From the NCBI GenBank assembly GCA_900551205.1, contig URUW01000125.1, positions 1 through 5,605 of the forward strand: DNA of 5,605 nucleotides, read 5' to 3'. The stretch is from an uncultured Collinsella sp. GTDB taxonomy: Bacteria; Actinomycetota; Coriobacteriia; Coriobacteriales; Coriobacteriaceae. Each line of letters begins with the position of its first letter. Within the stretch, counting starts at the first letter, position 1. Under the pieces are notes generated by a model. It was not told the origin of the DNA and ran no database searches. It saw only the letters and a program-made list of their open reading frames with translations. Shown here piece after piece: positions 1 to 5,605 of this stretch. Position numbers and translations under genes: made by a program.

Positions 1-66
1 GATATGGATGCCGTGACCAATTCCGCCCTCGATCTTTCGGATGAGATTATCGCCTGCCATGCATAA
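1..66 (+). CDS. 3' end of an unidentified upstream gene (partial)
   Basis: Frame 1 is open from the first base and ends in TAA at 64-66, giving a 21-residue tail that finishes DEIIACHA. Its stop overlaps the ATG of the glycosyltransferase (shared bases 59-66, ATGCATAA). Such an overlap is typical of co-transcribed, translationally coupled genes, and it is the main reason to treat this short open stretch as real. Its function cannot be judged from 21 residues. By context it probably belongs to the same surface-polysaccharide or glycosylation operon, but that is inference. Confidence 0.6.
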   Translation, partial: DMDAVTNSALDLSDEIIACHA

Positions 67-1090
67 AGTCATAACATTCGGTATTCCCTCGTATAACGCC
101 GCCAAGGACATGGACCATTGCATCACCTCCATCTTGGAGGGGAGCAATTACGCCACCGATATCGAGATTATCGTGGTGGACGACGGCTCCAAGGACGAGA
201 CGGCCGCCAAGGCCGACGAGTGGGAGGCCCGTTATCCTGGAATCATCCGCGCGGTGCACCAGGAGAATGGCGGCCACGGTATTGCCGTCCTTTCGGGTCT
301 GCGCGAGGCGCAGGGCACCTACTACAAGGTCGTCGACTCGGACGACTGGCTTGACGGCGCTGCCCTTTCGACCATGCTGTCGATTCTGCGCGGCTTTGAA
401 GAGCGCGACCAGCGCGTTGACCTGTTTATCTCGAACTACGTGTACGAGAAGGTTTACGAGGGTACGCATACGGCCATTGGTTACAAGTTTGCCCTGCCTC
501 GAAAAAAGATCTTTACCTGGGACCAGATCGGCCATTTCCGTTTGGACCAGAATCTGCTCATGCACAGCCTGTGCTATCGCACGGATGTGCTGCGCGAGTC
601 CAACCTGCCCATGCCGCCGCACACGTTCTATGTGGACAACATCTACGCCTACGTGCCGCTGCCGCGTTGCAAGACCATGTACTACGCCGACATCGACCTC
701 TATCGCTACTTTATCGGTCGCGAGGGCCAGAGTGTCAACGAGGCCACGATGGTCAAGCGTCTGGACCAGCAGTTCCGTGTTACGCGTATCATGATGGAGT
801 CGTACCACCTGTACAGCGATGTCGAGTCGTCGCGTCTGCGTTCGTACATGATGGGCTACTTCACCATGATGATGGCGATCTGCTCGGTGCTCACCAAGCT
901 TTCCGACGAGGATTGTGCCGATGAGCGTCTGAAGACGCTGTGGGCGGACCTGAAGGCCTACGATGAGCGCATGTATCGTCGTGCTCGCTACGGCGTGGTC
1001 GGCTTCTTCACTAACCTCCGCGGTCGTGCCGGAGACAAAACCACACTCGGCCTATACCGTCTTGCCTCAAAGATCTTCAAATTCAACTAG
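59..1090 (+). CDS. family 2 glycosyltransferase (GT-A fold)
   Basis: This 343-residue protein should transfer a sugar from a nucleotide-sugar donor onto a growing glycan at the cytoplasmic face of the membrane, as GT2 enzymes do. The opening VITFGIPSYNAA (residues 4-15) is the first GT-A strand. IIVVDDGSKDET (37-48) is the nucleotide-binding motif, and VVDSDDWLD (91-99) holds the DxD metal/donor site. YVDN (191-194) sits where the later acidic acceptor motif is expected. A Met-rich hydrophobic stretch (about 265-284) may associate with the membrane, and the tail is basic and aromatic (SKIFKFN). An ATG at 41 is in frame, but the ATG at 59 is preferred because homologous GT2 proteins begin just before this strand and it gives an 8-base overlap with the upstream stop. 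No strong Shine-Dalgarno site precedes either ATG, which fits translational coupling. Donor and acceptor cannot be predicted. The family call is firm; the polysaccharide role is inferred. Confidence 0.93.
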   Translation: MHKVITFGIPSYNAAKDMDHCITSILEGSNYATDIEIIVVDDGSKDETAAKADEWEARYPGIIRAVHQENGGHGIAVLSGLREAQGTYYKVVDSDDWLDGAALSTMLSILRGFEERDQRVDLFISNYVYEKVYEGTHTAIGYKFALPRKKIFTWDQIGHFRLDQNLLMHSLCYRTDVLRESNLPMPPHTFYVDNIYAYVPLPRCKTMYYADIDLYRYFIGREGQSVNEATMVKRLDQQFRVTRIMMESYHLYSDVESSRLRSYMMGYFTMMMAICSVLTKLSDEDCADERLKTLWADLKAYDERMYRRARYGVVGFFTNLRGRAGDKTTLGLYRLASKIFKFN

Positions 1091-1110: not shown

Positions 1111-1223
1111 GGGGACCCCTGGTCCTTAACTTGCTACTTCGGACAGTCCTGCGCAAGACGAAGGCGCCACTGGCGCCTCCTTTGCGTGCGGAACTCGTAT
1201 CAAGTTAAGGACCAGGGGTCCTC
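1111..1223. repeat. palindromic structured element A
   Basis: A 113-base element lies 20 bases after the glycosyltransferase stop. Its arms are 1111-1133 and 1201-1223. Of these, 1113-1133 pairs perfectly with 1201-1221 (21 bp), followed by one G:U and one G:C pair. The 67-base interior contains a hairpin, AGGCGCC (1162-1168) / GGCGCCT (1172-1178) with loop ACT, plus a second short pairing CGCAA (1152-1156) / TTGCG (1182-1186). The core blocks CGAGTTCCGCACG (- strand, 1197-1185) and CAGGACTGT (- strand, 1151-1143) recur in element B. There is no coding potential and no T-run after the stem, so it is not a classical intrinsic terminator, although a stem this long between convergent genes could still block transcription. 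It may be a REP/MITE-like repeat or a structured RNA. Confidence 0.85.
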
Positions 1224-1237
1224 TGCTATGTCTCGCT

Positions 1238-1312
1238 TTATGTCAGGCAGCTGAATTTGAAGATCTTAGACGCGCGGTACACAGGGGCCTGGGCTGAAAA
1301 GATTTTGGTTGG
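1238..1312 (-). pseudogene. remnant resembling the 3' end of the glycosyltransferase gene
   Basis: Bases 1249-1267 are an inverted copy of 1070-1088 in the glycosyltransferase gene, with 18 of 19 identical. Read on the - strand, 1279-1253 encodes YRASKIFKF, against YRLASKIFKF at the C terminus of the enzyme. The two differ by one missing codon, and the frame then ends at TAA (1238-1240). The residues before YR do not match the enzyme, and the frame has no plausible start, so any gene here is reduced to its tail. It lies between elements A and B. Alternatives are a recent inverted duplication around element A, or an outer arm of that element that includes the gene's 3' end. The repeat is certain; the gene-remnant reading is inference. 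Confidence 0.4.
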
Positions 1313-1314
1313 TA

Positions 1315-1439
1315 GGTTGCCCGGTGGGGCTTGGTTATGTTTGTCGCGAGTTCCGCACGAGCCGAAGAGCACTTAATGTGCTCTTCGTGCGTGCCAGGAC
1401 TGTAGAGCAGCAAACATAACCAAGCCCCACCGGGCAACC
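1315..1439. repeat. palindromic structured element B
   Basis: A 125-base element begins 12 bases beyond the peptidase stop. Its 29-bp arms (1315-1343 and 1411-1439) are perfectly complementary. The 67-base interior holds a 10-bp hairpin, CGAAGAGCAC (1363-1372) / GTGCTCTTCG (1378-1387) with loop TTAAT, extended by GCAC (1355-1358) / GTGC (1391-1394). The blocks CGAGTTCCGCACG (1347-1359) and CAGGACTGT (1395-1403) match element A read on the opposite strand. The arms and the inner stem differ in sequence from those of A yet pair within each copy. No coding frame is credible and no T-run follows on either side. Its place next to the 3' end of the - strand peptidase gene would let it protect or end that transcript. 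Confidence 0.87.
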
Positions 1440-1451
1440 GGTCAGGTTAGG

Positions 1452-2453
1452 CTACTTCGCGGCGCCGGGGATGCCGTGGGAGGTTTTGGCGGTTTTGGCT
1501 CCGTTTACGATGGCGGTTTGCAAAGCCCTTACGGCGAGCATGCCCAGCAGGTCTAGGGGAACGGCGGCGTTTGCCTGGGCGCCCAGTTTGCCGCTGGCGA
1601 GGGTGTAGATGGTGTCGCCGTCGTTGGTGGTGTGCGTGGGACGGATGGCGTGTGCGTAGGCGTCTGCGGCCATCTGGGAGACCTTGGTGGCTTGTTCCTT
1701 AGTGAGTTCCACGTTGGTGACGATGCAGCTGATGGTGGTGTTGGTGCGGTCGAGCGGCATCTGCATGGATCCGGCGGCGGCAAAGGCTGCGAGTTCCATA
1801 TCGACGATTTGGTCGCTATCGGCTGAGGCGCGCATGCCGGCGACCCACTCGCCGGTGAGGGGGTCGACAACGTTGCCGCAGGCGTTGACCGAGACCACGG
1901 CGCCCACCTTGATGGGGCCGAGCGCCACGGCGGCAGCGCCAAGGCCGGCCTTCATGCAGGTGGCGGGGCCCATGAGCTTACCCACGGTAGCGCCCGTGCC
2001 GGCGCCTACGTTGCCCTGTTCGAGCTTGGTGGGGGTGTGGTCGAGCGCCTCGCGCACGGCGGCGATGCCGGCCTCAATGTCGGGGCGAACGGTGGGGTCG
2101 CCAAAGGCAAGGTCGAAGATACAGCTGGAGCACACGATGGGCACCTGCGTGGGGCCGACGGGCAGACCAATGCCGCGGCTCTCGAGTTCGCGGGCCACGC
2201 CGCTTGCAGCCTCGAGGCCAAAGGCCGATCCGCCCGAAAGGCAGACGGCGTGGACCTTATCGACGGTGTTTTCGGGACGCAGCAGGTCGGTTTCGCGCGA
2301 TGCTGGAGCACCGCCGCGAACGTCAACGCCGCCGGTGGCGCCCTCGGGCGCCACGATTACGGTGCAGCCGGTGCCAGCCTCCTCGTCCGTATAGTTGCCA
2401 AAGCAAAAGCCATCGACATTGCAAACATCGATGGCTTCGAGCAGTGTGTCCAT
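1452..2453 (-). CDS. P1 family peptidase (S58, DmpA-type, Ntn hydrolase)
   Basis: This 333-residue protein belongs to the family of L-aminopeptidase D-Ala-esterase/amidase (DmpA) and beta-aminopeptidases. These cytoplasmic enzymes cleave themselves into two chains and use the freed N-terminal residue as nucleophile to hydrolyse small peptides or amides. Visible family signatures are the Gly/Ser-rich segment AVCLSGGSAFGLEAASGV (69-86), GNVGAGTGATVGKLMG (148-163) and RTNTTISCIVTN (236-247). By family precedent the chain should break between Asn238 and Thr239, making Thr239 the nucleophile instead of the Ser of DmpA; this is inferred. TNDGDTIYTLASGK (276-289) is the late conserved block. The ATG at 2453 is chosen because AGGAG precedes it by 5 bases and the protein then starts as the family does; the frame stays open for 95 more codons upstream into the maf region, which is not coding. 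The natural substrate is unknown. Confidence 0.93.
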   Translation of the reverse strand: MDTLLEAIDVCNVDGFCFGNYTDEEAGTGCTVIVAPEGATGGVDVRGGAPASRETDLLRPENTVDKVHAVCLSGGSAFGLEAASGVARELESRGIGLPVGPTQVPIVCSSCIFDLAFGDPTVRPDIEAGIAAVREALDHTPTKLEQGNVGAGTGATVGKLMGPATCMKAGLGAAAVALGPIKVGAVVSVNACGNVVDPLTGEWVAGMRASADSDQIVDMELAAFAAAGSMQMPLDRTNTTISCIVTNVELTKEQATKVSQMAADAYAHAIRPTHTTNDGDTIYTLASGKLGAQANAAVPLDLLGMLAVRALQTAIVNGAKTAKTSHGIPGAAK

Positions 2454-2475: not shown

Positions 2476-2512
2476 CCGGGCCTTATGCCCGGTCGGGATC
2501 CGTACGGTACGG
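2476..2512 (-). promoter_or_regulatory. small palindromes in the leader of the peptidase gene
   Basis: Between the Maf stop and the peptidase start (2454-2553) are two small palindromes: CCGGGC (2476-2481) / GCCCGG (2487-2492) with a 5-base loop, and CCGTA (2500-2504) / TACGG (2508-2512). They may be 5' UTR structure or an operator. No convincing -35/-10 pair was found, although a TACAAT hexamer occurs on the - strand just upstream of them. This is pattern evidence only. Confidence 0.25.
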
Positions 2513-3674: not shown

Positions 3675-3765
3675 AAGGGTTCCTTTCGTAAGGCGGCATA
3701 CAATTAGCCGTCTTATACCCCGAAGACATGCGCTTGCCGCGCTCGATTTTCCATTGTTTAAAAAG

Positions 3766-3819
3766 GGACGGGGCTATTTTAGCTACCCCACTTGCAGGGT
3801 AGCTAAAATAGCCCCGTCC
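3766..3819. repeat. 23-bp perfect palindrome C
   Basis: The arms at 3766-3788 and 3797-3819 are perfectly complementary over 23 bp, around the 8-base loop CACTTGCA. The sequence begins GGACGGGG, has a T/A-rich middle and ends TAGCTACCC. A third partial copy, TTAGCTACCC, lies just beyond at 3823-3832 as a direct repeat of 3779-3788. It sits between divergently transcribed genes, 91 bases upstream of the DJ-1 family start, so a terminator role is unlikely. It looks like a dispersed REP-like intergenic palindrome, or an extruding/regulatory site. It shares no core with elements A and B. Confidence 0.85.
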
Positions 3820-3854
3820 GAATTAGCTACCCTCACCCATCCTCAACAATCTCA

Positions 3855-3899
3855 ATCTGTAACATCTAGACCCACTTTTGACCCCTAACTGTTACAGAT
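3855..3899. repeat. 45-bp palindromic repeat D, copy 1
   Basis: The arms ATCTGTAACA (3855-3864) and TGTTACAGAT (3890-3899) flank a 25-base spacer. Reading the reverse complement aligns it with copy 2: identical arms, equal spacer length, 16 of 25 spacer positions the same (including CAAAA and GGGTCT), and the flank TGAG against CGAG. Copy 1 is therefore inverted relative to copy 2. Confidence 0.82.
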
Positions 3900-3935
3900 C
3901 AAGACAAACGGAAACCGCCCCGACAAAACGTCTAA

Positions 3936-3980
3936 ATCTGTAACATCTACGGACCAAAACCGGGTCTTACTGTTACAGAT
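3936..3980. repeat. 45-bp palindromic repeat D, copy 2
   Basis: The arms ATCTGTAACA (3936-3945) and TGTTACAGAT (3971-3980) enclose a 25-base spacer that itself contains GACC (3952-3955) / GGTC (3963-3966) around AAAACCG. It lies 36 bases after copy 1 and in the opposite orientation. The pair could be a REP-like doublet or a double operator for a dimeric regulator. No transposase is nearby to decide. Confidence 0.82.

Positions 3981-5605
<1,625 letters not shown>

What the first reader, a model, noticed from the sequence alone, without database searches (positions are those of the whole stretch)
1111..1439. Two non-coding elements with one architecture, conserved cores and covarying stems
Elements A and B are oppositely oriented. 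Each has long self-complementary arms (23 and 29 bp) separated by exactly 67 nt. Both carry CGAGTTCCGCACG three bases inside one arm and CAGGACTGT near the other arm. Between these blocks each has its own internal hairpin (7 bp in A, 10 bp in B). The arms and the inner stems differ in sequence between copies but remain complementary within each copy. This is covariation, and it argues that the folded shape is what is kept. In both copies the two core blocks can pair with each other imperfectly (AGT-CC with GG-ACT, leaving one bulged base), which recalls substrates of single-strand DNA enzymes such as REP-associated transposases or integron attC sites, as well as structured RNAs. I know of no described element with this exact layout, but I cannot search.
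Basis: partly seen in the sequence, partly recalled or inferred. Interest (0 to 1): 0.75.

Follow-up and report, generated by a model that had tools for sequence, protein, structure and literature searches.

The report
Self-mirroring DNA hairpin repeats of Coriobacteriia
Many bacteria of the class Coriobacteriia carry a family of hairpin-forming repeats (6 to 49 copies in each of 12 genomes counted) whose stems differ between copies yet stay complementary within a copy, and which likely work and are kept as folded DNA rather than as RNA.

Summary
Elements A (1111-1223, minus) and B (1315-1439, plus) belong to a family found in 140 of 296 sampled Coriobacteriia genomes, with 6-49 copies in each of 12 genomes. 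No Rfam family matches A or B.

Anatomy: a long locus-specific stem; an internal loop from two conserved blocks (GCGAGTTCCGC / AGGACTGTnnGAGC); a variable apical hairpin that may be missing. Stems covary even between strains at one locus: 79 of 90 variable pairs switch between Watson-Crick pairs.

The RNA inference is weakened, not excluded. In outer arms and apical stem G.T and A.C are similar (44:33; 15:12), against 23:1 in tRNAs; but one subfamily's outer arms favour G.T (18:4). No upstream promoter or U-tract enrichment. RAYT linkage fails (0 of 19 Y1 loci). Tips flip and are lost at orthologous sites; every close inverted pair listed has 3' arms outward.

Best reading: REP-like extragenic DNA hairpins, likely recognised as a folded strand, arms likely kept complementary by copying from each other. 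Recogniser and function are unknown.

The parts
1111..1223 (-). Element A, whole hairpin (oriented on the minus strand)
   Evidence: model R1 81.2 bits
1201..1223 (-). A, 5' arm of the long stem
1111..1133 (-). A, 3' arm; 20 nt separate its outer end from the GT2 gene end (1090)
1185..1197 (-). A, core block 1 CGAGTTCCGCACG
1162..1178 (-). A, apical hairpin, 7 bp with 3-nt loop
   Evidence: fold
1143..1151 (-). A, core block 2 CAGGACTGT
1315..1439 (+). Element B, whole hairpin
   Evidence: model R1 83.9 bits
1315..1343 (+). B, 5' arm of the long stem (29 bp)
1347..1359 (+). B, core block 1 CGAGTTCCGCACG
1363..1387 (+). B, apical hairpin, 10 bp with loop TTAAT
   Evidence: fold
1395..1403 (+). 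B, core block 2 CAGGACTGT
1411..1439 (+). B, 3' arm; 12 nt separate its outer end from the S58 peptidase gene end (1452)
59..1090 (+). Neighbouring gene: family 2 glycosyltransferase, convergent with the next
1452..2453 (-). Neighbouring gene: peptidase family S58

Best explanation
A and B are two copies of a family of dispersed hairpin repeats, widespread in Coriobacteriia, that likely act as folded DNA (a single-strand hairpin or cruciform that would be bound at its conserved tip by an unidentified protein), with arms that are likely kept complementary by copying from one another. Shown: the architecture, the copy number, the intergenic position in one annotated record, the covariation within and between loci, its near strand symmetry in most variable stems, flips and losses of the tip at orthologous sites, and the uniform orientation of the close inverted pairs listed. 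Inferred: when the strand folds back, the two conserved blocks come together into one asymmetric internal loop that a protein can read whatever the length of the apical hairpin. Inferred: mutations in an arm are overwritten from the other arm (template switching or cruciform repair), so arms drift freely in sequence while staying paired. Inferred: copies spread within a lineage as non-autonomous repeats and come to lie at the edges of transcription units. The binding protein, the spreading enzyme and any benefit to the host are unknown.
For: High-copy family. The blocks are conserved although the part between them runs from 8 to 39 nt in 131 loci and about 60 nt in G009, so they are neighbours only in the folded strand. 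Variable stems: G.T 44 vs A.C 33 in outer arms of 136 loci (p 0.25), 15 vs 12 and 6 vs 3 in the apical stem, against 23 vs 1 in 25 tRNAs from the same loci. At 9 orthologous loci 68 of 90 variable pairs show only Watson-Crick types, 11 show Watson-Crick switches plus a mismatch, 11 mismatches only (some switches are whole-arm allele replacements). Element A in L152 has its tip partly inverted and in L155 partly deleted (by eye). The element upstream of S58 is oppositely oriented in G002 and G070 and looks reduced to a remnant in G178. Every inverted pair within 450 nt has 3' arms outward: 12:0:0 in four Collinsella genomes (by eye; some loci are shared between genomes), 11:0. Tips are more alike within a genome than between genomes (0.724 vs 0.624; the inner arms too, 0.458 vs 0.322). 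No promoter or U-tract enrichment.
Against: In the Eggerthellaceae-type copies (60 loci) G.T exceeds A.C in the inner 12 bp (84 vs 2) and also in the outer arms (18 vs 4, p 0.004), as expected if one strand folds, possibly as RNA; only the other 76 loci are symmetric there (26 vs 29). Over whole arms G.T is 172 vs A.C 64. The core is strand-asymmetric (though there A.C exceeds G.T, 35 vs 19, in A2). Selection on RNA made from both strands would also give symmetric mismatches. No recognising or copying enzyme was found and transposition was not seen. The outer 5' arm is G-rich (mean skew 0.36, 85% of 136 loci above zero), which pure arm-to-arm copying does not explain. Lack of SbcD is only a correlate.
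Confidence: 0.45

Rival explanations
1. A structured RNA: the GAGTTCC strand is transcribed (own promoter or read-through), folds, and binds a protein or ligand at the internal loop.
For: Strong covariation (score 0.562 vs 0.145 shuffled); G.T favoured in Eggerthellaceae-type copies, inner stem 84:2 and outer arms 18:4; in one annotated record 7 of 13 copies point towards a co-directional gene (rplC, rpsL, rplJ, groES, ribonuclease J, carbon starvation protein A, thrB).
Against: No clear RNA-like G.T preference in outer arms of the other 76 loci (26:29) or in the apical stem, unlike tRNAs. No sigma-70-like enrichment upstream (68 loci, mean score 3.4 vs 3.9 shuffled). No U-tract enrichment. 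Orientation to neighbouring genes is mixed. For rpsL, rplJ and groES likely promoters, judged by eye, lie between element and gene (the scan tool found none at groES), so the element would not be in the leader.
Confidence: 0.29
2. A two-way transcription boundary: read-through RNA of either strand forms the hairpin and stops polymerase or protects 3' ends.
For: Intergenic position next to stop codons (6 of 13 annotated copies lie 25-74 nt from an opposing stop) or upstream of strong operons; need for pairing on both strands would make G.T and A.C equally disfavoured.
Against: No U-tract enrichment: 3 of 136 sense and 6 of 136 antisense vs 6 and 7 in control positions. Copies also lie between thrC and thrB and between Maf-like and S58 genes. 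A plain terminator would not need a conserved asymmetric tip.
Confidence: 0.15
3. REPIN/RAYT-type mobile DNA moved by a Y1 transposase.
For: Inverted pairs, extragenic, within-genome similarity; Y1 genes present in 8 of 13 genomes.
Against: 5 of 13 genomes with 11 or more copies have no Y1 match; no element at E<=1 in 19 loci around Y1 genes; size and copy number differ from REPs.
Confidence: 0.05
4. An integron-attC-like recombination site used as a folded single strand.
For: Folded layout with a bulged base and unpaired loop resembles attC (recalled); the recombinant L166 switches arm alleles within the tip.
Against: Conserved blocks are inside and variable stem outside, the reverse of attC (recalled); neighbours in the annotated record are ordinary genes, no cassette array seen; L166 is explained by homologous recombination. 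Integrases were not searched.
Confidence: 0.05

Closest known systems
REP / BIME / REPIN extragenic palindromes
   Same: Dispersed, extragenic, palindromic, oriented, inverted doublets, more alike within than between genomes.
   Different: 81-157 nt (median 116, 136 loci) instead of 20-40 bp (PMC3733652, start of abstract seen in a listing), tens instead of usually more than 100 copies (PMC2817692, start of abstract seen in a listing), stems conserved in complementarity rather than in sequence, conserved split tip, no RAYT link.
Collinsella-1 RNA (RF01700) and other Rfam families
   Same: Candidate structured element of Collinsella and relatives.
   Different: No Rfam match at A or B. In 17 further loci no family reaches its gathering score at a copy; miRNA-precursor matches far below gathering overlap copies in L046 and L275. 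The one Collinsella-1 hit (L015 3125-3277, 27.2 bits, below gathering 35) does not overlap the copy at 3825-3878.
Palindromic structured-RNA candidates of human microbiomes (PMC8040213; three passages seen)
   Same: Palindromic, gut bacteria; most of those were predicted terminators.
   Different: No U-tract enrichment here. Whether one of that paper's 3161 candidates is this element could not be checked: supplements were not available.
Integron attC sites (recalled)
   Same: Folded-strand recognition logic, bulged base, variable apical part.
   Different: Outer arms variable here; no cassettes seen; integrase not searched.

Membership tests
REP/REPIN (RAYT-associated) | Extragenic position | tested here: met
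   13 of 13 copies in NZ_OY725717.1 lie between listed genes; the gene table of that collection is incomplete, and my crude gene caller put 10 of 147 and 27 of 102 copies inside an ORF.
REP/REPIN (RAYT-associated) | Paired copies in inverted orientation | tested here: met
   Inverted pairs within 450 nt are all (-)(+): 12:0 plus 5 same-strand neighbours, 11:0 plus 4 same-strand, 12:0 in four Collinsella genomes. Most copies are single.
REP/REPIN (RAYT-associated) | Short palindrome of 20-40 bp | tested here: not met
   Whole hairpins 81-157 nt.
REP/REPIN (RAYT-associated) | Linked Y1/RAYT gene | tested here: not met
   No Y1 match in 5 of 13 genomes; 0 elements at E<=1 in 19 Y1 loci.
REP/REPIN (RAYT-associated) | GTAG or CGTC tag at the foot | not tested
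   k-mers at the foot showed TCAAC and CAGGT, but the tags were not scored.
Rfam RNA families including Collinsella-1 | Covariance-model match above gathering score | tested here: not met
Structured RNA | G-U favoured over A-C in variable helices | tested here: inconclusive
   Not favoured overall in outer arms (44:33) and apical stem (15:12) vs 23:1 in tRNAs; favoured in Eggerthellaceae-type copies (inner 84:2, outer 18:4).
Structured RNA | Transcription of the folded strand | not testable with these tools
   No expression data; promoter scan negative.
Intrinsic terminator | U-tract directly after the stem | tested here: not met
   3 and 6 of 136 vs 6 and 7 in control positions.
Phage- or plasmid-borne element | Occurrence on phage or plasmid records | tested here: not met
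   0 in viral contigs by two exact patterns, 0 in phages with one query; the only plasmid record is 899,693 bp and carries ribosomal operons.
Integron attC | Gene-cassette array with integrase | tested here: inconclusive
   Neighbouring genes in one record look like ordinary genes; integrase was not searched.

The most novel reading that the evidence does not exclude
A new kind of repeat whose identity lies in a split tip that exists only when the DNA strand is folded, and whose arms are rewritten by each other, so that DNA-level copying produces RNA-like covariation without RNA; Coriobacteriia, in which none of 13 genomes tested has an SbcD above the curated score, would carry a conserved protein that reads this folded DNA.
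Probability: 0.3. Interest if true: 0.82.

Novelty: new variant of a known kind. Interest (0 to 1): 0.63.

Why it matters
It adds a repeat family, found in about half of the sampled Coriobacteriia genomes, that Rfam and the papers found by my searches do not describe, with copies beside ribosomal-protein, groESL and RNA-decay genes. It is also a warning case: covariation, the usual proof of RNA structure, may here arise in part from DNA arm-to-arm copying. The G.T versus A.C test helps to separate the two and could be applied to other palindromic 'structured RNA' candidates. A recombination-mutant experiment would make the mechanism directly testable.

Tried and rejected
Local duplication or coincidence: rejected by the genome scan. 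RAYT: rejected. Intrinsic terminator: no U-tract enrichment. Own promoter: no signal. CIRCE at groES as a promoter marker: no match. A sense-strand RNA reading from the whole-arm G.T excess: I first took this as proof of RNA, then found that it comes mostly from the inner 12 bp of Eggerthellaceae-type copies; it is gone in the outer arms of the other 76 loci (26:29) but not in those of the Eggerthellaceae type (18:4). Insertion of the tip into a pre-existing hairpin: the empty gaps seen by eye show no such hairpin and inner arms are shared between loci, so not supported. Phage or plasmid carriage: negative. Clustering of copies on one side of the G002 chromosome: seen by eye, not seen in G148. 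My gene caller was crude: 10 of 147 and 27 of 102 copies were scored 'inside' an ORF, which I attribute to wrong starts but did not check one by one; the context counts carry that error. Rows dropped before counting: antisense or weak matches (3 rows, 4; they remain among the 105 rows), edge cases, and copies failing the arm-score cut-off. Literature: eight searches found no description; supplements could not be read.

Full report
Observation. The window carries A (1111-1223, minus strand) and B (1315-1439, plus strand) in the gap between a convergent glycosyltransferase (59-1090) and S58 peptidase (1452-2453). The window's own genome is not held.

Family. All 120 record names are Coriobacteriia genera or family labels (Collinsella, Adlercreutzia, Slackia, Gordonibacter, Parvibacter and others; class membership of the rarer genera recalled). 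From 47 distinct tips I built an alignment and model R1. With R1, 140 of 296 genomes of the class match at E<=1e-6 although only 14 candidates per genome were scored. In the phylum sample 27 of 396 match at E<=1e-4; 24 of these 27 are also among the matching genomes and three are not (G322, G524, G576; class unknown). Two of the three, and the class member G009, were read and show the same core. Copies per genome, with the best 150 candidates scored: 29, 32, 6, 23, 30, 39 (E<=0.01) and 32, 27, 29, 23, 49, 33 (E<=1e-4). None in viral contigs by two exact patterns or in phage records with one query.

Anatomy. The consensus is: long stem P1; internal loop GC-GAGTTCC / GGACTGTnnGA-GC with a bulged T; GC/GC; a variable joint; apical stem P3. 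In A1 the core is invariant because the scan demanded it. In A2 (105 matches, fitted to the model, including three or four antisense or weak rows) it stays nearly invariant while P1 and P3 vary. P3 is missing in short forms of G006 and G036 and long in G009. Arms are 20-41 bp (5th-95th percentile of 136 distinct loci that passed an arm filter) and whole hairpins 81-157 nt, median 116.

Covariation. A1: score 0.524 vs 0.167 shuffled. A2: 0.562 vs 0.145. At 9 loci with at least three alleles, 68 of 90 variable pair positions show only Watson-Crick types, 11 show Watson-Crick switches plus a mismatch, and 11 show mismatches only; part of the switches come from replacement of a whole arm allele. 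At the window locus in 22 genomes of the aerofaciens clade B has two very different arm alleles, each complementary, and A has two. L166 carries the 5' arm of one B allele and the 3' arm of the other, a recombinant through the tip.

RNA or DNA. In RNA, G-U survives and A-C does not. tRNA stems from my loci give 23 G.T to 1 A.C (25 tRNAs, 300 cells). Outer arms give 44:33, P3 gives 15:12 (A2) or 5:2 (A1) or 6:3. Split by subfamily (membership listed), the outer arms of 76 loci, many from Collinsella, give 26:29, but those of 60 Eggerthellaceae-type loci give 18:4, and their inner 12 bp give 84:2 with a conserved G.T. The core pairs of A2 give 19:35. So most variable stems look strand-symmetric while one subfamily and the inner stem do not. 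This fits DNA that is paired at both strands and read at the tip on one strand; RNA, above all made from both strands, is not excluded. No promoter enrichment and no U-tract enrichment were found. The G-rich outer 5' arm suggests some selection for clean folding.

Dynamics. Upstream of S58, among 18 further loci, G002 and G299 have the element in one orientation, G070 has it reversed, G178 has what looks like a remnant, and 14 show none in the 230 nt read by eye; R1 finds no match in the 14. Element A in L152 has part of its tip inverted between intact arms; in L155 part is deleted. Tips are more alike within than between genomes (0.724 vs 0.624; largest shuffled difference 0.035 against 0.100 observed), and so are inner arms (0.458 vs 0.322); kinship of the genomes was not corrected for.

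Position. In NZ_OY725717.1, 13 copies lie between listed genes (the table is incomplete). Seven point to a co-directional gene 22-389 nt away: rplC, rpsL, rplJ, groES, ribonuclease J, carbon starvation protein A, thrB. Six have the 3' arm side 25-74 nt from an opposing stop codon: PNPase, manA, a UvrD-domain helicase, tsaD and two hypothetical genes. Promoter-like sequence between element and rpsL, rplJ and groES was judged by eye; the scan tool found none at groES. Close inverted pairs are (-)(+) in every case listed: 12:0 (two of the twelve are near-identical loci), 11:0:0 in four Collinsella genomes (110 of 111 matches listed, some loci shared); same-strand neighbours were 5 and 4.

Mechanism search. 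Y1/RAYT. SbcD (TIGR00619), whose complex cuts long palindromes (recalled), is over its cut-off in 0 of 13 genomes; the five Collinsella genomes have no match and the eight others a partial one. Eggerthellaceae-type copies also have the shorter arms (median 22 vs 29), a correlation only.

Novelty. No Rfam family at gathering score on copies and no description in eight paper searches. Passages found by term were seen in PMC8040213, PMC12306157, PMC11109978, PMC2864571, PMC7771070 and PMC3116915, and term counts only (all zero) in PMC3733652. None describes this element, but no paper was read whole and supplements were not available. I place it as a new variant of dispersed extragenic palindromes.

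Noticed in passing
window 1249-1273 versus 1064-1088: An inverted, diverged copy of the glycosyltransferase 3' end (minus strand reads VYRASKIFKFS, gene ends YRLASKIFKFN) lies between A and B in the aligned strains.
   Followed up: partly
window 2476-2492: CCGGGCCTTATGCCCGG in the Maf-S58 gap resembles the 5' arm of the element that C. stercoris has at the same place; possibly a remnant with the tip lost.
   Followed up: partly
window about 3763-3820: Another long hairpin, GGACGGGGCTATTTTAGCTACCC with its complement, followed at about 3850-3985 by two related hairpins with CTGTAACATCTA / CTGTTACAGAT.
   Followed up: no
L271 and L270, 5' side of the elements at rpsL and ribonuclease J: Both loci share AAAACCGACCAAAATAAACCTGTCCCT just upstream of the element; perhaps a second Collinsella repeat.
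   Followed up: no
3' flanks of Eggerthellaceae-type copies, e.g. L202, L206, L228: CAGGT is enriched within 40 nt outside the 3' arm (25 of 136 vs 4.8 expected) and TCAAC outside the 5' arm (18 vs 4.3); a possible outer stem or end motif.
   Followed up: partly
L273 about 2055-2240 (groES): The hairpin seems to continue in a further outer stem of about 12-14 bp (CTGAATGCCGGG / CCCGGCATTCAG) beyond an internal loop.
   Followed up: no
NZ_OY725717.1 (L269-L277): A record labelled plasmid 6 (899,693 bp) carries ribosomal-protein operons, fusA and groESL; it looks like a piece of chromosome.
   Followed up: partly
L243 and L251 (G002): The two loci, about 635 kb apart, carry nearly identical element pairs in opposite orientation, suggesting a duplicated segment.
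   Followed up: no
L015 3125-3277: Sub-threshold Collinsella-1 RNA match (27.2 bits, gathering 35) in Adlercreutzia.
   Followed up: no
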